Assembly (NCBI RefSeq): GCF_033366695.1
Contig: NZ_JAOBTQ010000001.1
Coordinates: 2,914,001 to 2,978,000 of the forward strand
Direction: 5' to 3'
DNA from: Streptomyces sp. SCL15-4
GTDB taxonomy: Bacteria > Actinomycetota > Actinomycetes > Streptomycetales > Streptomycetaceae
DNA: 64,000 bases
Shown here: one piece after another, positions 50,993-63,990 of the stretch
Position numbering within the stretch: the stretch's first letter is position 1
Layout: every line of letters starts with the position of its first letter
The notes under the pieces: model-generated
What the model was told of the DNA's origin: nothing
The model's input: the letters and a program-made list of their open reading frames with translations, nothing else
Database searches by the model: none
Translations under genes and position numbers: made by a program

Positions 50993-51064
50993 GCCCCCGT
51001 AGCTCAGGGGATAGAGCAACGGCCTCCGGAGCCGTGTGCGCAGGTTCGAATCCTGCCGGGGGCA
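50993..51064 (+). tRNA. tRNA-Arg (anticodon CCG)
   Basis: A full cloverleaf can be drawn: acceptor GCCCCCG with CGGGGGC, D-arm GCTC/GAGC, anticodon stem ACGGC/GCCGT with loop CTCCGGA (anticodon CCG at 51026-51028), and T-arm with loop TTCGAAT. The discriminator base is A and the 3' CCA is not encoded. An integrase gene follows nearby, so the 3' end of this tRNA is the likely attachment site. Confidence 0.96.
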
Positions 51065-51081
51065 CCTTGTAGGAGGTGCCT

Positions 51082-51651: not shown

Positions 51652-53025
51652 TCACTCGTACTCCCGCAGCAACTCCTCGATCTTGCGGTTGGCGATCTCC
51701 TGTCGTCCATCGATGCACTTGGCGTAGCGGCTCAGCAGGACCTCCACGCTGTTGCCCGCACGCTCGGCGACTTCAGTCGGATCCACCCCGGAGTTGAGCC
51801 AGGTCGACAGTGCCGAGTGCCGGAGATCGTACGGACGCGCGGCGAGCGGGGAGGAGACCGCGGCCGGCGGGAGCGCCAGCGCACGAGCCTCCTGCCAGAC
51901 GCGGTAGTACGTGGACGAGCCGACCACTCCCCCGCGCTCGTTGGTGAACAGTCGCCCGTCCTCGGCGGTGCCGAAGGTGTCGAGATGCTGCCGGAGGATG
52001 GCGACGAGTTGGGGCGGGATTGGTACGAGCCGGACCTCCTCCGCCGGCCGGTTCTTCAGCCCCCGGTCGTCGTGGGTCTCACCGGAGTCCGTCCACTGCT
52101 TGCCGACACTCGGGCGCGTCCGGTTCAGCAGTGCTGTCCCCCAACCGACCTGGGGCAGCTTCAGGTCTGCACTGGTGAGGCCAACGGCCTCAGCCGGGCG
52201 CAGGCCACCGTAGTACATGCAGGCGAACAGGCCGACGAGTCGGCGACCACGCGCGCGGCCGTACCCGCCGACGTACGAGACCGCAGTCAGCAGGGAACGA
52301 GCCTGCTCGGGATTGGCGACGACCCGGGGGTCGACCTCTCCGGCAACCCTTGGCTTCTTCCAACGGATGCCCGTGATCGGGTTCTCTCTAAACTCGCCGA
52401 GGTCTATCGCGTAGTGCATCGCGTTGACGAGTGTCCGACGCTTGCGCCGGACGGTCTCCGCGGCCGCCGCCGTCCCGTCGAGCTTCAGCTTGAGTGAGTC
52501 CAGGACGGCCCTGCCCATCGCCGCGTCACCGAGGTCCGAGAGTGGGCGCGACGCCTTGGCCACCCAGTGCAAGGTGTCCGCGATCTCAGTCGGCAATTCG
52601 CGCTCGTCTGGCCCCGGGAGGACGAAGGCCCAGTTGCGGAGTGCCTTCCTGATCAGTTCCTCGGACGGCTGCCCAGGGCGATCGTCGAGAAGGGCCATTG
52701 TCACGGCGGTCAGGGCCTCATTGATCCCATTGCGTGTGTTCGGCGCCGCGTGAGGCCACTTCATGGCCAGGTACTTCAGAGCGAAGGCGTACCAGGTCAT
52801 CGAGGCCGCTTTCTCAACCATCGAGTCGGGCAGCCCCGTCGCCGTGTCGAATTCTTCGCCATCATGAGTGGCACGGAGCAACTTGGAGCGGTAGTGATCC
52901 GCGAGCGCCTTGGTTCGGAACTGTTCGGAGAAGACGTTCCCGGCAACGGTCCATCGGACGTCATAGGACGACTTCTTGGTGTTCCTCTTCCGTACGCCCC
53001 ACACCTTCACGTCGAGAGACTTCAC
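51652..53025 (-). CDS. int: Tyrosine-type site-specific integrase
   Basis: The 457-residue recombinase has an N-terminal arm-binding/SAM-like half and the catalytic half with the Arg in YYGGLRPAEAVGL, the Arg/His box in RPYDLRHSALSTWL and the nucleophilic Tyr in VLLSRYAKCID. GTG 53025 overlaps the excisionase stop (GTGA) and has GGAGG seven bases upstream; a longer frame exists. It inserts and removes the element, most likely at tRNA-Arg(CCG). Confidence 0.95.
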   Translation of the reverse strand: MKSLDVKVWGVRKRNTKKSSYDVRWTVAGNVFSEQFRTKALADHYRSKLLRATHDGEEFDTATGLPDSMVEKAASMTWYAFALKYLAMKWPHAAPNTRNGINEALTAVTMALLDDRPGQPSEELIRKALRNWAFVLPGPDERELPTEIADTLHWVAKASRPLSDLGDAAMGRAVLDSLKLKLDGTAAAAETVRRKRRTLVNAMHYAIDLGEFRENPITGIRWKKPRVAGEVDPRVVANPEQARSLLTAVSYVGGYGRARGRRLVGLFACMYYGGLRPAEAVGLTSADLKLPQVGWGTALLNRTRPSVGKQWTDSGETHDDRGLKNRPAEEVRLVPIPPQLVAILRQHLDTFGTAEDGRLFTNERGGVVGSSTYYRVWQEARALALPPAAVSSPLAARPYDLRHSALSTWLNSGVDPTEVAERAGNSVEVLLSRYAKCIDGRQEIANRKIEELLREYE

Positions 53026-53219
53026 GCCGCTGCCTCCAACTGCCGCAACCACGTTGTGAAGTCGCTCCGCCACACGCGAAGTTCTCCATTCGGGAGCTTG
53101 AATGCCGCGGGCCCTTGACCGAGCTCGCGCCATCGGTAGAAGGTCCGGCGCGAGACACCACCCAGCTCATCGAGCACTTGGCGGACGGTCATCAGCTCGT
53201 CGGGAACACGCTGGGCCAT
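53022..53219 (-). CDS. xis: Excisionase (winged helix-turn-helix, Xis)
   Basis: The 65-residue protein is a MerR-type winged-helix of the excisionase kind: MTVRQVLDELGGVSRRTFYRW, then a wing with FKLPNGELRVWRSDF. It helps the integrase remove the element. It overlaps the rep gene by 28 bases and the integrase by four, so rep-xis-int form a tightly coupled operon, as in pSAM2. Confidence 0.92.
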   Translation of the reverse strand: MAQRVPDELMTVRQVLDELGGVSRRTFYRWRELGQGPAAFKLPNGELRVWRSDFTTWLRQLEAAA

Positions 53220-54565
53220 GTCGGTTCTCCTTCCGTCTGCGGATCGGTTGAGCGAGGGGCGATGCCGTGAGCGATGAGGTGTTCTGCGTTCGTCCACCCG
53301 GTTCCGGCGAAGCGCCAGTGGGAGAGGACGAGGACGGTGTCCGGGTCGGGCAGGGGGTGACCCGCTTCGGGCGCGCGGGCGCGGGCCAGGGCTTCGTTGT
53401 GGTCGGCGCGTTCCTGGCGGAGGGCGCCGAGGGTGACGGAGTAGGTGCGGGACTTGGTGGAGAAGTGGCCGCGGAAGCCGAGCATGTGGGCCCACTTGCG
53501 CAGGCGCAGCGCTTCGAGTTTGGGGAGCGCGCCGAGGTGCCAGCAGGTGAGGATCATCCGGCGGGCGTGGTCGGTGACACCGGAGCCGATCAGGTCGGTG
53601 ATGGGGTTGCGGACGGGGTGGTCGAGCGTGCCGGCCGTCTCGGCGCCTTTGGTGGCGTACTTGGCGATGTAGGCGGCCACGGCCCGGCTGGACAGCTCCG
53701 AGGTGCCCGCGAAGTCCGCGGAGCGGATGGGGCGGATGTCGAGCTGGTCGCCGAAGCGGAAGGCGTAGGCGCGGCCGTCGATGACCGGGCCGGGTGTCTC
53801 GGCGAGGCGGGCGGCCGAGCGGATCGCGTCGGTGAGGAGTTCGGTCGTGGCCCAGGCGGGCGGGTCGTCCTCCGCGCCTCCCGGGCCGTCGAGGCGGATG
53901 ACGGCGTGGAAGTGGACGGCGCCGCGCCGCTGGTACTCGGCGACCTTGGCGTACGACACACGGAGGCAGTCACGCGTCGCGGAGCGGGTGAGGCCCGCGC
54001 GGGTGGCGATCTGCTGGCGCAGGTAGGTGGTGAACCGACCCCAGAGGGCACCGGCATGCGCGTTCCAGAGGACGGCGGCCTGGTAGTCGTAACGCTCAGG
54101 GTCGAGCGGCGTACCCAGAGCGGGGTCGTCCTCCGTGTGCGAGCGTCCGCAGCGGCACCGGCCGCCGGTCGGGCGGTTGTGGACCGGGCCGAAGGACGGA
54201 GCGGTGAAGGTGGCGAAGACGCGGGGGTGCCGGGCGACCGCCGGGCCGATGCCTTTGCCGCCGTTCAGACCGGCCGTGACAAGGTGGAAGGTGTCCTTGC
54301 GGTACGTCTCCGCGCAGGTGGCACACCGGGTGGCGCGACGGTTGTTGCAGCGGATGAGGAGCTGTCCGGCCGGTAGGTCGCGGTCGGTGATCTCCCGGAC
54401 GATTTCACCGGTGGCCACGTGGACGTCGAGCCGGTGACCCTCCATTCGTACGGGCCGCTCGCAGCCGCCGAGGCGCTGGATCTGCCGGGCGTAGGAGCCG
54501 AGGTCGCCGTGCCGGGCGAGGGCGGCCATGTGACGGATGGCTCCAAGGGGAGCCGGTGGACGCAT
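53192..54565 (-). CDS. RepSA-type replication initiator
   Basis: The 457-residue protein matches the initiators of Streptomyces pSAM2-type elements. It has an N-terminal cysteine cluster (RCNNRRATRCATCAETYRKD), a further CRCGRSH, the HUH-like metal-binding motif AVHFHAVIRLDG near residue 218, and a Tyr/Lys motif AAYIAKYATK near 300, likely the nicking tyrosine. It should start rolling-circle replication of the excised circle. The ATG at 54565 has AAGGAGG upstream, and an operator palindrome lies 40 bases before it. Confidence 0.9.
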   Translation of the reverse strand: MRPPAPLGAIRHMAALARHGDLGSYARQIQRLGGCERPVRMEGHRLDVHVATGEIVREITDRDLPAGQLLIRCNNRRATRCATCAETYRKDTFHLVTAGLNGGKGIGPAVARHPRVFATFTAPSFGPVHNRPTGGRCRCGRSHTEDDPALGTPLDPERYDYQAAVLWNAHAGALWGRFTTYLRQQIATRAGLTRSATRDCLRVSYAKVAEYQRRGAVHFHAVIRLDGPGGAEDDPPAWATTELLTDAIRSAARLAETPGPVIDGRAYAFRFGDQLDIRPIRSADFAGTSELSSRAVAAYIAKYATKGAETAGTLDHPVRNPITDLIGSGVTDHARRMILTCWHLGALPKLEALRLRKWAHMLGFRGHFSTKSRTYSVTLGALRQERADHNEALARARAPEAGHPLPDPDTVLVLSHWRFAGTGWTNAEHLIAHGIAPRSTDPQTEGEPTWPSVFPTS

Positions 54566-56122: not shown

Positions 56123-57487
56123 CTACTCGGTCACCGGGCGCGCGGTGGGCGTGGCGCCGGTCGAGGGGGACGGCCCGGCCGATGCGACGGCGACGGCGAG
56201 CCGGAAGCGGTCGAGCCGGGGCAGTTCAGGGACCAGAGCCGAGGTGCCGCGGCAGACGGCCGCCGCCTCTTCGAGCGAGAGAAGAGGAGAGCGGACGCGG
56301 GACCATCCGCCGGACGAGTCGCCGACGACCGCGACGCCGGGCCGGTCGGCAGGAATGGACGTGGCGGCCAGCGCTGCTTCGGGAGAGATGTCGGCCAGGG
56401 CCATGTTCGCCGACGCTTCGTCATTGACGCGGTGGCAAACGCGGCCGGTCAGTTGGGCACGCAGCATGGTGGCGCCCTTGCCGAGTTCCGAGCCGAAGCG
56501 CTGCCCGCAGACTTCGAGGTAGATGCCGGCCGCGCGGCCGAGCTGGGCGAGGCGGATGAGCTTGGTGACCAACGCGTCGCGCCGCTTCTCGTCATCCCGG
56601 TTCGCGGCGAGGAAGAGTTCCGCCACCTCGTCAACGACCAGCACTACCGGGACTGGCCGTACGGCGTCCGGCAGCCCCCAGACGTCCGAGGTGAGAACAG
56701 CGTCCGGATCGGCACCGCTGAGCCCGATCAGCCGAAACCGGTCTTCCATCTCTTCCAGCAGCGCGTCGAGGAGGTCGTTCGCCCGATCCGGGTCGTCGGC
56801 CAGCGCCGACAACCGGGGTGCGAAGGGCGCCAGTTCGACACCCCATTTGCAGTCGATCCCGACGAGGACGACCCGCTGCCGGGCCAGGCCGCACAGCAGG
56901 TTGCGCAGGTAGACGGACTTTCCGGACTGCGTGGCGCCGAGGATCAGTTCGTGCGGCACGGTGCGAAAGTCGCGTACGTGCCAGTCGCCGTCCTCTCGCA
57001 GCGCCAGCGGCAGGCAAAGCGGCTCGGCCGCAGCCTGACGCCGGGCGGGCCGCACATCGGCGAGCATGTCCCACCCGACGAGCCGCAGTTCGAGCCAGCC
57101 GGGTTTCATGGGGCGTACGTGGACGGCGTGGGCGCCCCAGGCATGGCGCAGTCGGTCGGCCGAGGCGGTGAAGTCCTCGGGCGCCTGCCCGGTCGCCATG
57201 CGCAGCCGCATGACGAGACCGGATGCGTTGGGCCGGGGGAAGGACCGCCGGGGCGGCACGGGTGCCGCCTGCCGCCCGATCACCCGGGCCGTGGCGACCC
57301 GGACGGCGGAAGCCGGGACCGTCAGGCCGCACGCGTCCATCGTCGCCCGGTACGACAGCAGCACCCGCAACGCGACGACCGGATACCCGACCAGCCACCA
57401 GAACACCACCGGCATCCGCCGACGGACCACCAGCAGCGCGACCACAAGGAGCAGGACCAGCAGCAGCACCCAGGTAACGTCAGTCAT
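56123..57487 (-). CDS. FtsK/SpoIIIE-type DNA translocase (TraSA-like)
   Basis: The 454-residue protein has an N-terminal membrane segment pair (about residues 4-45), Walker A GATQSGKS near residue 185 and Walker B VPVVLVVDEVAELF near 268. One such protein is enough to move double-stranded DNA between Streptomyces hyphae. ATG 57487 is chosen over the TTG three codons upstream. It overlaps the next gene upstream only slightly, so the two are coupled. Confidence 0.93.
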   Translation of the reverse strand: MTDVTWVLLLVLLLVVALLVVRRRMPVVFWWLVGYPVVALRVLLSYRATMDACGLTVPASAVRVATARVIGRQAAPVPPRRSFPRPNASGLVMRLRMATGQAPEDFTASADRLRHAWGAHAVHVRPMKPGWLELRLVGWDMLADVRPARRQAAAEPLCLPLALREDGDWHVRDFRTVPHELILGATQSGKSVYLRNLLCGLARQRVVLVGIDCKWGVELAPFAPRLSALADDPDRANDLLDALLEEMEDRFRLIGLSGADPDAVLTSDVWGLPDAVRPVPVVLVVDEVAELFLAANRDDEKRRDALVTKLIRLAQLGRAAGIYLEVCGQRFGSELGKGATMLRAQLTGRVCHRVNDEASANMALADISPEAALAATSIPADRPGVAVVGDSSGGWSRVRSPLLSLEEAAAVCRGTSALVPELPRLDRFRLAVAVASAGPSPSTGATPTARPVTE

Positions 57488-57492
57488 GGCGA

Positions 57493-57840
57493 TCAACCCT
57501 GGGCCGCAACCGGCGCGTTGACCATGACAGCGTCGGCCCGGTAGGCGATGCCGTGACGGCTACGCCCGCCGAACTCGCTCTCCCACGGCCGGGCGACCAG
57601 GCCCGACAGGATGACCGGCGCGCCCATGACCAGGCCGTCTCCGATCCCCTCTTCGGGAATGGTCACCTTGATCATGTCCGAGCCGCCGGCCGCGATGAAC
57701 ACCAGCTCCAGCGTCATGAGCCGCTGGTTGGTCACCGGGTCCACGGCGACCTCGCCGGTCTGACGGTCCCTGACCTTGACCTCGGGGAGCTTGGTGACGA
57801 GCAGCGTCGCGGCGGAGGTGTCTACGGGGATCACACGCAC
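57493..57840 (-). CDS. SCO3933 family regulatory protein
   Basis: The 115-residue protein (MRVIPVDTSAATLLVTK...) has an OB-like composition without clear motif. The family regularly precedes the tra gene in Streptomyces elements, where it is called a regulatory protein. It stands first in the transfer operon, just downstream of the operator cluster at 57900-57990. GTG 57840 follows GAGG; another GTG two codons later is possible. Confidence 0.8.
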   Translation of the reverse strand: MRVIPVDTSAATLLVTKLPEVKVRDRQTGEVAVDPVTNQRLMTLELVFIAAGGSDMIKVTIPEEGIGDGLVMGAPVILSGLVARPWESEFGGRSRHGIAYRADAVMVNAPVAAQG

Positions 57841-58022: not shown

Positions 58023-58844
58023 CTATCGAACGGCCCAGTGGAGGACGGTCGCGTCGTCGTGCGCCTTGCCTCGCGGCCAGCGCCGACCGTCGGGGTCGCT
58101 CTTCTCGGCCTCTCGCACACGGCGGATCAGTTCGTCCGGCCCGGAGGAAGCAAGCACGTCCAAGTACTCTGCCCAGTCGGCGATTTGGAAGCGATCGACG
58201 AGCCGGGTCGCGCCGTCACTCAGAAGCGTCACGGTGGACAGCGAGTCAAGCGCCACCGTGCCGGCCAGCGCGTGTTCGGCCGCCTGCGGGTCGGGGCCGG
58301 CGATCCAGAAGCCGTCCGGCTGGTTGCGCAGACCGGTCAAAGCCTCCCGGTAGTCGGCGAGCGCGGCGGAATGCTCGGGTGAGCCGGTGGGCAGCGCGTC
58401 GACCGGCCCGCGCAGTCGCTTGCCGACTTCGTCCAGGCGCCGGTCGGTGACGACGGTCGCACTGCCGTCCTCCTCCTCCAGGAGCAACGAGGAATCACCC
58501 AGGACCAGGTACTCCAGCCTTTCCCCGTTGATCCGTGCGGCGACGACCGTACTGGTGGGACTGGCCCGGTACGCCAGGTCACAGCTGTCGCCGTGCAGCG
58601 AGCGGACGCGGCCGATCGAGTCGGCCAGGCACTCGGTGAGCGGCCGGGCGGGGGACCTGGAGATGGCTTGGAGCAGCAGGCCGCCCAGCGTCCCGGAGAA
58701 CCAGGCGACACCGTGCGTGCACCCAGTCTCGGCACCACCGACGCCGGCGCCGTCGAGGAGCACGACCGCTCCGGGAGCGGCGGCGGCGAAGTCCTCGTTC
58801 TCTCGTTCCGGGTCGGCGGGGAGCGTGGCGAGGTCGACCCTCAC
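58023..58844 (-). CDS. PP2C-type protein phosphatase
   Basis: The 273-residue protein has the PP2C metal motifs AVVLLDGAGV near residue 29, VTLLSDGATRLVD near 208 and DDATVLHW near the end. It should remove phosphate from Ser or Thr. GTG 58844 overlaps the stop of the HTH gene by four bases (GTGA), so the two are co-translated. The partner is unknown; the RsbW-like ATPase nearby is a plausible opponent. Confidence 0.85.
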   Translation of the reverse strand: MRVDLATLPADPERENEDFAAAAPGAVVLLDGAGVGGAETGCTHGVAWFSGTLGGLLLQAISRSPARPLTECLADSIGRVRSLHGDSCDLAYRASPTSTVVAARINGERLEYLVLGDSSLLLEEEDGSATVVTDRRLDEVGKRLRGPVDALPTGSPEHSAALADYREALTGLRNQPDGFWIAGPDPQAAEHALAGTVALDSLSTVTLLSDGATRLVDRFQIADWAEYLDVLASSGPDELIRRVREAEKSDPDGRRWPRGKAHDDATVLHWAVR

Positions 58845-59692
58845 ACCGCCGTCTCCTCGTCGTGCCGGTACAGGGGGCAGAGCAGTTCCACGGACTGCGG
58901 TTCGCTGGTCTCGGGGTCGTACTCGACACCCACCAGAGTGGAGAACCGGCGGTCGCCGACCTGGCCCCACATCACGTTCAGGTCGTTGGCGAGGAGCTGC
59001 ACGACACCGAGGGAACCTTGCGTGTGGATACCGGCGATCGCGAGCAGCGAGCCGTTTCCGTCCGGTCGCGGCAGCCGGCCGAGGTAGCCGACGTCGTACG
59101 GCCGGACCGGGTCGCTGTCCTGCCCCGAGCGGTACACGGTGCCGGTCTGCCGGTCCACGACGGTCCAGGGCCCGTCTTCCGCACGCTCCCAGTGGAGAAC
59201 CGGGTCCTGGGCGTAGGTGTCCCACATGGCCTGGGACATGCGGGGGCCGCAGACCACGATCAGGCCGTCCCGGTTGAGGTCGATCTCGCCGGTCACCGGC
59301 ACATGCTCCGAGGCGACGTCGAGCCCGTACGACCGCGCCAGGTCTTCCAGCCGCTTGCCGGAACTGACGTCGTCCACGGCGACGACGGTCCGACCGCGTT
59401 CGTCGTCCCGCCGCAACGGTGTGGCGACGGTGACGGCGCCCCGGCCGAGGAAGGCCCCTTCCGGCGCCGGACCGGTGTGCCGGATCTGGTGGATCCGCCC
59501 GCGGCTCAGGCCGGCCTTCGCGGCGATCTGCGCGTACGACAACCCTTGGGCGTGCAGGTCCTGAACCACTCGGCGACGAAGGCGGGCCAGCTCAGTCACC
59601 TCTTGCTGCGCGTCCGCCAAGCGAGTCGTCACCTCGCGCAACAGCAGGTACGGATCATCGATCGTCATGATCCGTTGGAGCTCGTCCGACAT
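58841..59692 (-). CDS. HTH regulator with unknown C-terminal sensing domain
   Basis: The 283-residue protein begins with a helical stretch and has a helix-turn-helix near residues 45-70 (LSYAQIAAKAGLSRGRIHQIRHTG). Its roughly 200-residue rear part (GKRLEDLARSYGLDVAS, IVVCGPRMSQAMWDTYA, WTVVDRQTGTVYRSG) I do not recognise. ATG 59692 has GGAGG upstream, and a perfect 16-bp palindrome lies 28 bases before it. It is a candidate for the factor that reads the element's operators. Confidence 0.75.
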   Translation of the reverse strand: MSDELQRIMTIDDPYLLLREVTTRLADAQQEVTELARLRRRVVQDLHAQGLSYAQIAAKAGLSRGRIHQIRHTGPAPEGAFLGRGAVTVATPLRRDDERGRTVVAVDDVSSGKRLEDLARSYGLDVASEHVPVTGEIDLNRDGLIVVCGPRMSQAMWDTYAQDPVLHWERAEDGPWTVVDRQTGTVYRSGQDSDPVRPYDVGYLGRLPRPDGNGSLLAIAGIHTQGSLGVVQLLANDLNVMWGQVGDRRFSTLVGVEYDPETSEPQSVELLCPLYRHDEETAV

Positions 59693-59719
59693 GACCTCAC
59701 CTCCTAGCAGTACCCAGGA

Positions 59720-59735
59720 GTCTAGGGCCCTAGAC
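59720..59735. promoter_or_regulatory. Operator palindrome before the HTH-PP2C pair
   Basis: GTCTAGGGCCCTAGAC is a perfect 16-bp palindrome, with the same GTCTAG-N4-CTAGAC layout as at 54609 and 60274. It lies 28 bases before the HTH gene start, so it could be autoregulatory. Confidence 0.75.
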
Positions 59736-59867
59736 GGAATGGGAGGCAGCCGCCGCCCGGTACGCACACCGATCACGTAGAAGCGCGATCTCCTCCGGGG
59801 GACACCTCTCGGGCTCACACCTCACCGCCAACTATGCGAACCCGCGATCGCACCGCTTTCTGCGCCC

Positions 59868-60257
59868 TCATACGCTCGCCCGCACCAGATCGGCCCAGAC
59901 GAAGCGCCCGTCAGGCAAGATCGTGTAGCCCCAGTTCTTCGCCAAGGCATCGATCAGCCGTAGCCCACGACCTCCCTCTTCACGGCTGGTGACGGGGCAC
60001 AGGTGAGGCACGCGAGCGCCGCCCTGGTCGACCACCTTGATGCGCACGAGATCGTCACCAAGGCCGACGACCACCAAGAACCACCCACCAGGCATGCCAC
60101 TCCGCGTATGCCGCAGGGCGTTCGTCGCCAGCTCGCTCACGACCAGGACGGCGTCTTCGACCGGACCACGGTCCGCGAGCAGGGAGGCCACGAAGTGACG
60201 GGCATTGGACACCTCTTCCGGCAGGCCGGGGAAGACACGGCACCACTTGGTGAGCAT
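59868..60257 (-). CDS. RsbW-like ATP-binding protein (anti-sigma kinase family)
   Basis: The 129-residue protein is a stand-alone HATPase domain: N box in SELATNALRHTRSG, then VVDQGG and the G2-type EEGGRGLRLID. Streptomyces contain many of these, often beside an XRE/DUF5753 protein as here. Possible roles are a Ser/Thr kinase toward an anti-sigma-type protein or a partner of the PP2C phosphatase. ATG 60257 is downstream of an operator palindrome. Confidence 0.85.
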   Translation of the reverse strand: MLTKWCRVFPGLPEEVSNARHFVASLLADRGPVEDAVLVVSELATNALRHTRSGMPGGWFLVVVGLGDDLVRIKVVDQGGARVPHLCPVTSREEGGRGLRLIDALAKNWGYTILPDGRFVWADLVRASV

Positions 60258-60273
60258 GGGAACCTCTCCGTTC

Positions 60274-60289
60274 GTCTAGGGGGCTAGAC
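60274..60289. promoter_or_regulatory. Operator palindrome before the RsbW-like gene
   Basis: GTCTAGGGGGCTAGAC has the same 6-4-6 layout as the operator before rep. It lies 17 bases before the ATG at 60257, in the short gap between this gene and the XRE gene. Confidence 0.75.
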
Positions 60290-60352
60290 AGCGTGACGGC
60301 AGAGTATTCCCAGCGATGAGCAGCATTCTAGGCATGTCGAGGAATTATTCCT

Positions 60353-61201
60353 CTATTGGGTGAGGGCATCCCCCAGGTCGCGGAACTCCTTCATCACCCG
60401 CAACAGCAGCTCGCGCACCTCATCACCGAAGACGGCAGCGCGCTCGAAGCGCTCGAAGGTCTCCTCGTAGGCGGCCACTTCAGCAGCGTCAGTGGACACC
60501 CGTTCGTTGTCGAAGGTCTCGATCACGACCGCCCGCTGGTCGCACAAGGTGAAGCCGTGCCGCGGCAGCACCGGCACCGGCCGGCGCCAGGGAATCACCC
60601 CCAGCCGTACCGTGCTCAGACTCTCCACCGCCAGCAGCCGGTCGAACTGCGCCAGCATCAGCGCCGGACTCCCGGGCCAGGTCCGCAACACGGCCTCGGT
60701 GACCACGAACACCGACTCCCGCCCCGGCTCGTACAGGACGCTCTGCCGATCCACACGGGCAGCGACGGCCCGACCGACAGCCTCGGGTGTCGAGCGCGGG
60801 GCGCTCTGGAAGACGTGCCGGGCGTACTCCGCGCTCTGCAACATGGCCGGCAGTACGACGCACTGGAACGAGCGCACGGACTGAGCGGACCGCACCTCTT
60901 CATCAACGGTCGTGCCCTCGGCGACGTCAACAGCGGTCGACTCGTCGTCCTCGGCGGCAAGCACGCCCGCCAGCAGCTCCCACACCTCACGAGAGACCGA
61001 CTCATCCACGCCGAGGGCGCCCACGATCCGGTCGAGCACATCCCGGCTCGGAACCATGCGCCCGGTCTCGATCTTCGACACGGTCGGCTGACCTACGCCG
61101 GCCCGCTGTGCCAGCACGGCACCCGTCAGACCCGACTCTCCACGAAGCACACGAAGACGCGCACCCAGCGCCTTCATCCGCTCCCGCCGCTCACTCCCCA
61201 T
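60353..61201 (-). CDS. XRE-family regulator with DUF5753 domain
   Basis: The 282-residue protein has an N-terminal XRE helix-turn-helix (about residues 15-65, LAQRAGVGQPTVSKIETGRMVPS) and the DUF5753 domain with QCVVLPAMLQSAEYARHVF and VRLGVIPWRRP. Such proteins are abundant in Streptomyces and often lie beside an RsbW-like ATPase and a DUF397 protein; no DUF397 gene is seen here. ATG 61201 is used; ATG 61177, eight codons in, has a better ribosome site. A GAGGAAT palindrome overlaps the stop. Confidence 0.85.
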   Translation of the reverse strand: MGSERRERMKALGARLRVLRGESGLTGAVLAQRAGVGQPTVSKIETGRMVPSRDVLDRIVGALGVDESVSREVWELLAGVLAAEDDESTAVDVAEGTTVDEEVRSAQSVRSFQCVVLPAMLQSAEYARHVFQSAPRSTPEAVGRAVAARVDRQSVLYEPGRESVFVVTEAVLRTWPGSPALMLAQFDRLLAVESLSTVRLGVIPWRRPVPVLPRHGFTLCDQRAVVIETFDNERVSTDAAEVAAYEETFERFERAAVFGDEVRELLLRVMKEFRDLGDALTQ

Positions 61202-61613
61202 GTCCAGGGTTCTACACCACCCGCCACCAGGCACCCGTACGACCGGACACAGCGACCACCAACCGAACGTGATTCAAACTTTCTCTACTGGTTCAAGGCC
61301 CGCGCACGGCGCGGGCGCGCGCCGCCTCTGCGGCGCGGCCTGCCTCCTGTCTTCGCCCCGGCTGGCCGCGCCCGGCGGCGCGCTCGGCGACTGCGGGAAC
61401 ATCGTGGGGAGAAACCCGCTGCGGCTGGGGCGGTCGGCTCCACGGCTTCAGGCAGCCAATTTGGCGCGAGCCTCGAAGATCATGACCCAAGATCGGGCAC
61501 TAACGGGCAGGCTTACAAACCTGCGCGATCCGCGGGATAGTGTAATGGGCCATGATCACTCGCGCCAAATCAGCTCCAGCTCAAAGCCGCACCACCGACC
61601 TGATCCGCGATCG
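61202..61613. other. Non-coding gap between XRE gene and HEPN gene
   Basis: These 412 bases contain no supported gene. The left half is very GC-rich (CGCGCAC/GCGCGGG runs near 61300), and the right half shifts to lower GC, so the change in base composition lies in this gap. It may hold an old junction of the accessory cargo. Confidence 0.5.
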
Positions 61614-62273
61614 CTAGCTTTTCGGATCCCACTCAGCCAAATAGCTCTTCCGTGTCGCAGAGTTCAGAATTTGATTGGAAATGTCATCCATCATTTTGAC
61701 GATTTCCACTCTGACGTCATTCCAGTCGGTAAGCCTGATGTAGTCTTCTTCGCCGTGAGCGATTCTGTTTCGAGCCGCAAGCAATTGCTCATCGATCAGG
61801 TCTTCGTACGATGCGTATCGAGAAAAGTCACACCCCACCGAACACAAAATGTCACAGAGTCGCTCGTAGTTCAGATTCGAGAAAGTCCTGACCGCGTCAC
61901 GACTGGTGGGAATCTTGGCGCGGGATGACGCATCCTCTCGAATATCGCGAATTAGGGTCGCATGTATAAACGATCTATTCGTTGTCTCGAATTCCTCAAG
62001 CCTTGCCCGCATTGCCAGCGCCGCCAGCTCTGGACGCAGTTGCACATAAGACAACCTGAGGGATGCTAGGTAGCACAAGTAGGCGTGCGCGCAGTTCTTC
62101 ACGAACCCTTCCCAATGGGCATAGAGAAGAGCAATAGAAGCACGGAGCAACGCGGGGCGAATACCGAATTCAGCCCTCTCCACCTGCCCCTTGAAAACGC
62201 TGAGCTCTTTTTTCCTCCAGCCCAGATCTGCCGAGATATAGTCGTAGAGACCTTCGGTCGTGCGAATCTTCAT
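61614..62273 (-). CDS. HEPN-like nuclease, MAE_28990/MAE_18760 type
   Basis: The 219-residue protein is all helical with the family pattern RASIALLYAHWEGFVKNCAHAYL near residues 42-64 and a C-terminal R-x4-H motif in AARNRIAHGEEDY near residue 170. HEPN proteins with R-x4-6-H are usually RNases, often toxins or phage-response effectors. ATG 62273 lies 11 bases after the DUF262 stop, so the two genes are one operon. Base composition is clearly AT-richer than the core. Confidence 0.8.
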   Translation of the reverse strand: MKIRTTEGLYDYISADLGWRKKELSVFKGQVERAEFGIRPALLRASIALLYAHWEGFVKNCAHAYLCYLASLRLSYVQLRPELAALAMRARLEEFETTNRSFIHATLIRDIREDASSRAKIPTSRDAVRTFSNLNYERLCDILCSVGCDFSRYASYEDLIDEQLLAARNRIAHGEEDYIRLTDWNDVRVEIVKMMDDISNQILNSATRKSYLAEWDPKS

Positions 62274-62283
62274 TTGAGCGACC

Positions 62284-63411
62284 TCAGGGGCGGAAAAAGT
62301 CCTTGGCGGCAGGAATGGTAAGCGGAATGCGCGTGGTTCCACGTACGCCACCACGAGCCTGCGAACGGAAGAAGGTCTCTGACCACATGTCTTCGACACG
62401 CCCTCGGAGCGCCCCCGCTCGATCCTCTTCTGGCACTCGAGCCCACGCCTCCAGGTTGCTTGCGACCCCGACTGAAATGGCTTCAAACGCGGAGACCGAG
62501 AAACCTCCGAGAAACCGCCCCTTCGAATTGTCATAACGCCTGAAGGAGTCAGATTCCAGAGCCTCGGAAAGGAGGGAAAAGGTGTCCCGGAAGACCTTCC
62601 CCCAACTCGGCCTATCAAAGCCTTCACTGCCCGCCAATTCGAGCATCTTATCCGTCAAGAAGACGTCGACGCTCTCCATTTCCTTCAGCTCCTGAAGGGT
62701 GCTTGAGATAAGACTGAGGAATCGACAGACAAGTTCGAGATCGTACTGCTCTTCAGCGGCCCGGCTAGAGATTAGTGCACAGGCATTGAAGCTGGAATCA
62801 TTCCGCAGCTCCTCAAGCCAGAGGAAAAAATCACGGTTCCTCATGATGAGCTGGCAGTTTCTGACCTCTTGGGCCGAGGGTACTTCGCCACCAGAGTTCA
62901 AGCGATCAAAGAGCTCATACTTTGCTTTCTCGTCGCTTTCAGGCAATAGAATTTTGAAGTCAAGCTTGCTCCTCTTGAGGGAAACCCTCTGCCCAGGGGT
63001 GAGCGCTGCACCTTCTTCTGTGCCCTCGAAGCTCAAACCCTCCAGGGAGGGAAGGTAGCGCGTCCCCTGCAGTTGGCTCGGCGGGAGTAGCTCGCCTTTC
63101 TCCTCATCCCTCAGCTCGCCCATGAACTCCAAAATCGTTGAAAGCCTTTGGAGGCCATCAATCACTTCCCAGACTCCGTCGTGCCGCTGCATGACGAAGA
63201 TCGAAGGAAGTGGGATACCTAGGAGAATACTTTCAATCAGTCGCGACTTCTTCGGCGGTGTCCAGCGAAAGAGGCGCTGGAATTCCGGCCGAATCACCAA
63301 TTCACGATCACGGTATAGATTCACGATCTCACCGATGGACATTGCGTAGGCGTCTGCCTTGACCGTCGAGCGACCAGCCTCGATCTCGTCCTGCAGGGTC
63401 ATTTCACGCAC
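62284..63411 (-). CDS. DUF262 (GmrS/ParB-like) protein
   Basis: The 375-residue protein has the DUF262 motif set: YRDRELVIRPEFQRLFRW near residue 33, SRLIESILLGIPLPSIFV near 57, and the DGQQR-type motif as DGLQRLSTI near 84. DUF262 domains resemble ParB-type nucleotide-binding NTPases and are part of the GmrSD restriction enzymes, but no DUF1524/HNH domain follows here. Pairing with a HEPN gene suggests a defence function. GTG 63411 has GGAG five bases before; ATG 63402 is an alternative. Confidence 0.85.
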   Translation of the reverse strand: MREMTLQDEIEAGRSTVKADAYAMSIGEIVNLYRDRELVIRPEFQRLFRWTPPKKSRLIESILLGIPLPSIFVMQRHDGVWEVIDGLQRLSTILEFMGELRDEEKGELLPPSQLQGTRYLPSLEGLSFEGTEEGAALTPGQRVSLKRSKLDFKILLPESDEKAKYELFDRLNSGGEVPSAQEVRNCQLIMRNRDFFLWLEELRNDSSFNACALISSRAAEEQYDLELVCRFLSLISSTLQELKEMESVDVFLTDKMLELAGSEGFDRPSWGKVFRDTFSLLSEALESDSFRRYDNSKGRFLGGFSVSAFEAISVGVASNLEAWARVPEEDRAGALRGRVEDMWSETFFRSQARGGVRGTTRIPLTIPAAKDFFRP

Positions 63412-63711: not shown

Positions 63712-63990
63712 TCAACTCTCCTGGTCGTCGATCCCGCCGATGGCGTCAGGGAATGACTCCAGGAACTCGCGCCGCGCAGGATCCTGCTCCGCTTCGGCCA
63801 GGTCGGCGAGCACCTTAAGGAACCGTTCGCGTTGGTCTGAGGGCAGTTGCAGCAGCACCCAGCCCACGCTCTCCATCATCTTCACCGCGGAGTCCGGATC
63901 CACTTCCTCATCCCCGCAGCTCTCCAGCCACCAAACGATGTCCACGAGCAGGCCGGTGAGTGCCGGCACGAGCGGATCCGTGTCAGTCAT
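63712..63990 (-). CDS. Small acidic hypothetical protein
   Basis: The 92-residue acidic, helical protein (MTDTDPLVPALTGLLVD...) has two Glu/Asp-rich helices with SVGWVLLQLPSDQRERFLKVL and no motif I recognise. Similar short proteins occur in Streptomyces. Composition is like a real gene. Its ATG at 63990 is 10 bases from the window edge, so the ribosome site cannot be judged well. Confidence 0.65.
   Translation of the reverse strand: MTDTDPLVPALTGLLVDIVWWLESCGDEEVDPDSAVKMMESVGWVLLQLPSDQRERFLKVLADLAEAEQDPARREFLESFPDAIGGIDDQES

What the first reader, a model, noticed from the sequence alone, without database searches (positions are those of the whole stretch)
61614..63411. HEPN plus DUF262 two-gene cassette, a likely defence system
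A HEPN protein with R-x4-H (RNRIAH) and a DUF262 protein with a DGQQR-like motif (DGLQR) are 11 bases apart on one strand. Their DNA is AT-richer than all around it and lies in mobile DNA. DUF262 is known from GmrSD restriction, but here the HNH part is replaced by a separate HEPN RNase-like protein, which suggests nucleotide-triggered RNA cleavage upon phage infection.
Basis: partly seen in the sequence, partly recalled or inferred. Interest (0 to 1): 0.7.

Follow-up and report, generated by a model that had tools for sequence, protein, structure and literature searches.

The report
DUF262–HEPN pair on mobile element
Two neighbouring genes on a mobile element of a soil bacterium form a widespread, almost inseparable pair, a likely DNA or nucleotide sensor plus an RNA-cutting enzyme, which is probably an anti-virus defence of an already described kind.

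Summary
A DUF262 gene (62284-63402/63411, -) is followed after 10 bases by a HEPN gene (61614-62273, -). HEPN: PF18737 and PF18735, R-N-x3-H. DUF262: PF03235, DGLQR; closest fold BrxU. The pair is AT-rich cargo of a ~18.3-kb pSAM2-type element in tRNA-Arg, which also carries a methyl-dependent nuclease and a NaeI-type restriction-modification system.
The pair is close to obligate. In 77 of 80 genome loci a DUF262 frame lies directly upstream on the same strand; two exceptions keep its last 19-20 codons, the third has a transposase there. A survey with the Pfam model gave 8 of 8 (one already counted). R-N-x3-H stands in 78 of 80. Distances of the two proteins correlate (r 0.78).
It is not new in kind. 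A 2013 survey tabulated these HEPN families in operon with ParB genes, and a review lists DUF262 and HEPN in PD-T4-2, a phage-tested E. coli system. This HEPN does not match the PD-T4-2_B model, and I found no experimental paper on this subfamily in the library searched.
Best reading: an NTP-dependent GmrS-like sensor gates a HEPN RNase for defence. No activity was shown.

The parts
61614..62273 (-). HEPN protein, 219 aa, MAE_28990/RiboL-PSP family; putative RNase effector; R168-N169-x3-H173
   Evidence: Pfam PF18737 3.4e-33, PF18735 5.8e-31; R, N and H invariant in the 49 rows aligned, query included; AlphaFold2 pLDDT 91.7, best VIA rows HEPN domains
62284..63411 (-). DUF262 (GmrS-like, ParB/Srx-type) protein, 375 aa from GTG 63411 or 372 aa from ATG 63402; putative NTP-dependent sensor/regulator; IDGLQR at residues 84-89
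   Evidence: Pfam PF03235 3.4e-24; PADLOC NsnA 1.6e-54, PD-T4-2_A 1e-28; AlphaFold2 pLDDT 88.9, pTM 0.62, Foldseek best BrxU 1.3e-4
62274..62283 (-). 10-base junction; TGAGG at the DUF262 stop is a possible ribosome site for the HEPN ATG (translational coupling inferred)
   Evidence: sequence read
50993..51066 (+). tRNA-Arg (ccg), integration site; 51016-51065 is repeated exactly 18.3 kb away at L002 7284-7333 (beyond the window end, would be 69284-69333)
51653..53025 (-). tyrosine integrase of the element (stop codon just below)
   Evidence: Pfam Phage_integrase 9.6e-07, 29.2 bits against a cut-off of 27.1
53192..54565 (-). RepSA replication initiator (pSAM2 type)
   Evidence: PF20199 1e-151
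56123..57496 (-). FtsK/SpoIIIE-type DNA translocase (transfer protein by analogy with pSAM2, recalled)
   Evidence: PF01580 7e-33
60353..61234 (-). DUF5753/HTH regulator, last backbone gene before the cargo
   Evidence: PF19054 1.4e-36

Best explanation
A two-gene defence operon. The DUF262 protein is a GmrS-like, ParB/Srx-fold, NTP-binding regulator without a recognised nuclease domain of its own; it recognises a sign of invasion, most likely foreign or modified DNA or a change in nucleotides. The HEPN protein is an RNase that is held off, or not switched on, until DUF262 changes state, and then cuts RNA (perhaps tRNA) and stops infection, probably by arresting the cell. It sits as cargo on an integrative element and protects host and element. 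Shown here: two-gene order, near-obligate pairing across at least nine phyla, kept catalytic and nucleotide-site motifs, family and fold relationships, mobile and restriction-rich setting. Inferred: RNase activity, gating, trigger, phage protection.
For: Pairing: 77 of 80 loci with a DUF262 frame directly upstream, same strand; the other three are remnants; 7 of 7 viral contigs; 8 of 8 loci found with the Pfam HMM in 349 Pseudomonadota genomes, one of them L066 again. Co-divergence: Mantel r 0.78, 0 of 2000 permutations as high, 71 pairs. DUF262 tree of 68 rows that I chose: 37 of the 38 rows in one starred clade are next to HEPN. Motifs: R168 and H173 in 71 of 71, D85-G-x-Q-R89 in 71 of 71. 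Folds: HEPN structures head the VIA list; BrxU, SspE, the DUF262 protein of Dnd and CTP/CDP-bound ParB. Context: NaeI-type R-M and an AspBHI-like nuclease on the same element; 5 of 10 large proteins taken from the same place in sister elements match PADLOC models. Literature: HEPN/ParB operons (PMC3710099), PD-T4-2 blocks T4 (PMC9519451) and is listed with DUF262 and PF18735 HEPN (PMC10952713).
Confidence: 0.68

Rival explanations
1. Toxin-antitoxin module: HEPN is a constitutive toxin and DUF262 its antitoxin, kept for stability of the mobile element rather than for phage defence.
For: Two small adjacent genes on mobile elements and plasmids; MNT-HEPN toxin-antitoxin modules are described in PMC3710099 (passages).
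Against: DUF262 is lost or broken while HEPN is whole in four of 80 loci (L026, L050, L067, L015) against two the other way round (L013, L021). A free toxin would not be expected to survive that; caveats: L015, L026 and L013 are MAGs, L015 may be a frame error, expression is unknown.
Confidence: 0.15
2. DNA-directed restriction: DUF262 binds modified or foreign DNA and the pair destroys DNA, HEPN acting on DNA or only as a structural partner (type IV restriction in a new form).
For: Closest folds are the DUF262 proteins BrxU, SspE and that of DndBCDE-DndI, which act on DNA in restriction or phosphorothioate systems (PMC10952713; PDB title of 9jfl); MTases next door in some lineages.
Against: No HNH/DUF1524 domain in the protein; the only catalytic signature recognised is that of a HEPN RNase.
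Confidence: 0.1
3. Modification-linked system (not exclusive of the best reading): in its full form a DNA methyltransferase marks self, DUF262 checks the mark and HEPN is the executor; the window's pair is the short form or borrows the element's own C5-MTase.
For: A conserved Eco57I-like MTase lies directly upstream in 8 of 80 loci, all Clostridia; an N6/N4-MTase, with no BLASTP match to the upstream genes of the other loci, overlaps DUF262 in the three E. coli loci opened; the 2013 table says MAE_28990 occurs in operon with a ParB nuclease and DNA methylase genes (PMC3710099); a C5-MTase lies on the same element.
Against: Most loci, this one included, have no recognised MTase directly beside the pair; the element's C5-MTase adjoins its own NaeI gene.
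Confidence: 0.2

Closest known systems
HEPN MAE_28990 / RiboL-PSP-HEPN with ParB operons (Anantharaman et al. 2013, PMC3710099; passages and section 10 seen)
   Same: HEPN family by Pfam name, R-x4-H, operon with a ParB-type gene, R-M neighbourhood
   Different: A computational survey; no function tested. That its ParB is DUF262 is inferred. The methylase-bearing form is not the one in this window.
PD-T4-2 (Vassallo et al. 2022, PMC9519451; passages and section 7 seen)
   Same: DUF262 and a HEPN (PF18735) according to the table of PMC10952713; the DUF262 here matches the PADLOC PD-T4-2_A model at 1e-28
   Different: HEPN does not match the PD-T4-2_B model (168 positions); DUF262 matches the NsnA model better; no phage test here
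GmrSD / BrxU / SspE
   Same: DUF262 domain, nucleotide-site motif, closest fold (BrxU, Foldseek 1.3e-4)
   Different: No DUF1524/HNH nuclease; DGLQR instead of DGQQR; the partner is a separate HEPN protein
Menshen (NsnA-NsnC; that these names make up Menshen is recalled, its DUF262 gene is in PMC10952713)
   Same: DUF262 protein matches the NsnA model best (1.6e-54)
   Different: No NsnB match at the locus; HEPN partner instead

Membership tests
HEPN superfamily, MAE_28990 family (PF18737) | Profile match over curated cut-off | tested here: met
   116.1 bits against 26.8
HEPN superfamily, MAE_28990 family (PF18737) | R-x4-6-H catalytic motif | tested here: met
   R168-N-R-I-A-H173; R and H in 49 of 49 rows, query included and 71 of 71 pairs
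HEPN superfamily, MAE_28990 family (PF18737) | HEPN fold | tested here: inconclusive
HEPN superfamily, MAE_28990 family (PF18737) | RNase activity | not testable with these tools
   needs biochemistry
GmrSD type IV restriction | DUF262 domain | tested here: met
   PF03235 3.4e-24
GmrSD type IV restriction | exact (I/V)DGQQR motif | tested here: not met
   IDGLQR; of 77 DUF262 frames scanned DGLQR 56, DGVQR 15, DGQQR 2, none found 4
GmrSD type IV restriction | DUF1524/HNH nuclease fused or as partner | tested here: not met
   No such domain in either protein
PD-T4-2 | A component (PD-T4-2_A model) | tested here: met
   1e-28; 46 of 46 members of A4 match, and all 46 match NsnA too
PD-T4-2 | B component (PD-T4-2_B model) | tested here: not met
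   0 of 60 HEPN members at E<=0.01; P0001 none at E<=1
PD-T4-2 | blocks T-even phages | not testable with these tools
   plaque assay needed
Menshen | NsnA model | tested here: met
   1.6e-54
Menshen | NsnB gene at the locus | tested here: not met
   Three weak matches in the genome (2.6e-5 to 9.3e-4), none inside the window
Menshen | NsnC gene at the locus | not tested
   no search made with that model
Type II toxin-antitoxin | toxic alone, neutralised by partner | not testable with these tools
   loci with DUF262 lost and HEPN whole speak against it
AICE (pSAM2-like integrative conjugative element) | tRNA site with repeat, integrase, RepSA, FtsK-type transfer protein | tested here: met
   an empty site was not found

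The most novel reading that the evidence does not exclude
A DNA-sensing, RNA-cutting restriction class: a GmrS-like DUF262 NTPase that reads DNA (its modification or its foreignness) and licenses a separate HEPN RNase, so that recognition is of DNA but the cut is in RNA. In some lineages a dedicated methyltransferase writes the self mark, and DUF262 can exchange its effector (HEPN, or FRG and nucleotidyltransferase-like partners in sister elements).
Probability: 0.3. Interest if true: 0.65.

Novelty: new member of a known kind. Interest (0 to 1): 0.42.

Why it matters
If the reading holds, a widespread gene pair that databases name only by its domains, and whose HEPN half no PADLOC 2.0.0 two-gene model recognised in our scans, is an RNA-level defence gated by a restriction-type sensor. 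It would make one question directly testable: does a DUF262 protein pass a DNA or nucleotide signal to an RNase in trans, rather than to the HNH nuclease of GmrSD? The element also suggests that Streptomyces integrative elements carry exchangeable defence cargo.

Tried and rejected
Menshen: rejected, because no NsnB match lies in the window; NsnB behaves as an ATPase-type model, since it matches all 21 genomes and all 14 controls weakly (the ATPase reading is mine). PD-T4-2 membership: a direct comparison with PD-T4-2_B was sought and not obtained; 0 of 6 records or genomes and 0 of 246 genomes of the Klebsiella family matched the model. Paper searches for NsnA/NsnB found nothing relevant.

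Phages: no INPHARED record gave a tblastn match at 1e-5; 7 loci among viral contigs.

Empty site: the left flank was found in 77 of 81 genomes; in the 29 relatives whose loci I compared, the window's right flank was not found in the 1.25-1.5 kb after the tRNA, so no empty site is shown.

PDB by sequence: only weak matches for DUF262 (best 3.2e-5) and none of weight for HEPN. Foldseek for HEPN not significant.

Caveats: the genome scan used one peptide pattern, LLYAHWEG, so those columns are fixed by the search, and only the best 80 of 157 confirmed relatives were returned. The Pfam survey was made to escape this. Downstream neighbours: 93 proteins scanned with PADLOC; 196 families matched at 1e-10, of which only 25 are visible, none in more than 4 members (mad3 4); no background was measured, so no enrichment is claimed. 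Neighbour genes were called by a simple greedy rule, not by a gene finder.

Full report
WHAT IS THERE. On the minus strand, a DUF262 gene (62284-63411 from a GTG; more likely 62284-63402 from an ATG) is followed after 10 bases by a 219-aa HEPN gene (61614-62273). Pfam puts the first in GmrSD_N (PF03235, 3.4e-24) and the second in HEPN_MAE_28990 (PF18737, 3.4e-33) and HEPN_RiboL-PSP (PF18735, 5.8e-31). The HEPN motif is R168-N-R-I-A-H173, the DUF262 motif VIDGLQR. The DUF262 stop codon lies in TGAGG, a possible ribosome site for HEPN, which suggests translational coupling (inferred). The pair is 54.2% G+C in a 70.7% window.

WHERE IT SITS. The window lies in one contig of an 8.42-Mb genome; the closest named protein relatives are from Streptomyces, so I take the genus to be Streptomyces. 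A 50-bp stretch of a tRNA-Arg (51016-51065) recurs exactly at L002 7284-7333, 18.27 kb away. Between them lie a tyrosine integrase, a short excisionase candidate (53022-53219, judged by eye), RepSA, an FtsK-type protein and regulators: a pSAM2-type integrative element. The cargo end holds the pair and, beyond the window end, an AspBHI-like methyl-dependent nuclease, a C5-methyltransferase and a NaeI-type endonuclease.

IS THE PAIR REAL? A scan of the species genomes of GTDB with a HEPN alignment returned the best 80 of 157 confirmed relatives. In 77 of 80 a DUF262 frame lies directly upstream on the same strand; the gap between the matched parts is at most 34 nt in 76 and 88 nt in L067. In 70 of 80 HEPN has at least 190 aa and DUF262 at least 330 aa. 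The exceptions: L026 and L050 keep the last 19-20 codons of DUF262 before a whole HEPN; L054 has a transposase gene there and a HEPN that lacks its start. Short or split copies among the 77 are L013, L015, L021, L033, L066, L067 and L069; L033 reaches a contig edge, and L069 lies close to one. R-N-x3-H (in one R-H-x3-H) was found in 78 of 80; the other two, L013 and L021, are cut-short frames. Because the scan pattern was LLYAHWEG, I made a survey with the Pfam model: 1 of 346 Actinomycetota genomes matched, the window's own, and 8 of 349 Pseudomonadota genomes, of which one is the centre of the draw, the Klebsiella genome of L066. All 8 have DUF262 upstream and R-N-x3-H. Viral contigs: 7 of 7. 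Plasmids: 6 records; the three opened carry both genes, in the small Enterobacter plasmid across the record's start.

CO-EVOLUTION. Distances of the two proteins correlate across 71 pairs (the 70 whole ones and the window; Mantel r 0.78; none of 2000 permutations as high; highest 0.12). I had no reference gene for species descent, so part of this may be shared descent. In a tree of 68 DUF262 proteins that I chose, a clade with support 99/95 holds 38 rows, 37 of them next to HEPN; the label needs 4 changes on the tree against 21.8 in shuffles. The tree program warned of long branches (L159, L108, L087, L110, L101), and 'no HEPN' rests on about 1.5 kb of flank. The odd row in the clade, L093 from G259, has an FRG-domain gene overlapping its start, no HEPN in its locus and none in its genome at 1e-5. 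The species named in the tree belong to nine phyla.

HOW RARE. Among 295 genomes of the genus, the own included, 31 have a DUF262 match at 1e-20, but a close one exists only in the own genome and, at 40% identity, in G259. HEPN matches are found in 2 of 295, the second weak. This is an accessory gene pair.

METHYLTRANSFERASES. In 8 of 80 loci, all Clostridia by title or recall, there is an Eco57I-like MTase directly upstream: 0-36 nt before DUF262 in seven, and before the DUF262 remnant in L026; the other seven are 52-68% identical to that of L022. L060 has a DUF1156 protein with a DPPY motif there. In E. coli, 13 of 5426 genomes held a match to part (13%) of the Klebsiella DNA query; in the three that I opened the order is MTase-DUF262-HEPN, with an MTase that overlaps DUF262 by 4 bases and a diverged HEPN. 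In the 99 upstream neighbours scanned, 15 match Eco57I and 15 N6_Mtase models, probably much the same ones, and 6 match phage integrases. The window's own pair has no MTase directly beside it.

A DEFENCE SLOT ON THE ELEMENT. The regulator end of this element's backbone has a match in 24 of 295 genomes, in 21 over nearly the whole 2.4 kb, the own included. Nineteen cargo ends were fetched, besides L122. They differ, and many of their frames have a lower third-position G+C (0.5-0.7); a repeat of the tRNA end was found in 4 of 19, so for most the end of the element is not fixed. Of 10 large cargo proteins that I chose from these, 5 matched PADLOC models at 1e-8: DUF262 (NsnA), REase, HerA, mad8, MzaC. 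The DUF262 in L159 stands beside a gene that looks like a nucleotidyltransferase (judged by eye). Of eight actinobacterial loci with the pair searched for element genes, L004, L005 and L080 have RepSA, FtsK or Spd relatives (41-57% identity); L003, L006, L007, L009 and L025 have none within the stretch held.

MECHANISM. DUF262 of GmrSD, BrxU and SspE binds or hydrolyses NTP and controls a nuclease domain (PMC10952713, passages read). Here that nuclease domain is absent and a HEPN protein is the constant partner. The most economical model is that DUF262 senses and HEPN cuts RNA. PrrC, a HEPN nuclease held by a restriction system and released by phage, is the analogy drawn for R-M-linked HEPN proteins in PMC3710099 (section 10 read). 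The trigger is open: modified DNA, foreign DNA or nucleotides. Against a simple toxin-antitoxin pair: in four loci DUF262 is lost or broken and HEPN whole, in two the reverse, with the caveats that some are MAGs or single-frame breaks.

WHAT IS KNOWN. PMC3710099 tabulates RiboL-PSP-HEPN in operon with ParB, and MAE_28990 in operon with a ParB nuclease and DNA methylase genes. PMC9519451 (passages and section 7) shows that PD-T4-2 blocks T4 in its own host and in K-12; its domain figure was not visible to me; the table of PMC10952713 (passages) lists PD-T4-2 under DUF262 and PF18735 HEPN. PMC13092281 and PMC12839542 were seen in passages, none of which describes this pair. Searches for DUF262 with HEPN, and for the family names, found no experimental work on this subfamily; one search was seen as a listing; the library lacks most subscription papers and bioRxiv. 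PADLOC 2.0.0 recognises the DUF262 (NsnA 1.6e-54, PD-T4-2_A 1e-28) but none of 60 HEPN partners as PD-T4-2_B (weak hits of few members to other models, four of them to Cas13a). So it works like PD-T4-2 by architecture, but membership fails on the B model. Novelty: a new member of a known kind.

Noticed in passing
L002 3226-7110 (L002 starts at window position 62001, so this is beyond the window end): An AspBHI-like methyl-dependent nuclease stands next to a C5-methyltransferase and NaeI-type gene on the same element; a methyl-dependent nuclease beside a 5mC-writing enzyme raises the question how self-cleavage is avoided.
   Followed up: partly
window 58841-61234 and L155-L173: The element's regulator end adjoins an exchangeable cargo slot in sister Streptomyces elements; 5 of 10 large proteins scanned match REase, HerA, mad8, Mza or DUF262 models.
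   Followed up: partly
L122 5573-7521: A sister element carries a DUF262 gene from within the HEPN-paired clade, now overlapped by an FRG-domain gene instead: a likely partner exchange.
   Followed up: partly
window 50993-51066: tRNA-Arg(ccg) looks like an integration hotspot: 11 of 29 relatives compared have a match to the integrase within 1.5 kb after it, three of them to short stretches.
   Followed up: partly
L088 (CP056768.1): The pair makes up about 30% of a 5.7-kb mobilizable Enterobacter plasmid, DUF262 and HEPN meeting at the record's start.
   Followed up: no
L066 6870-8525: The Klebsiella michiganensis copy is broken in both genes (described only).
   Followed up: no
window 63712-63990: A 92-aa frame upstream of the pair on the same strand has no Pfam match; its role is unknown.
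   Followed up: no
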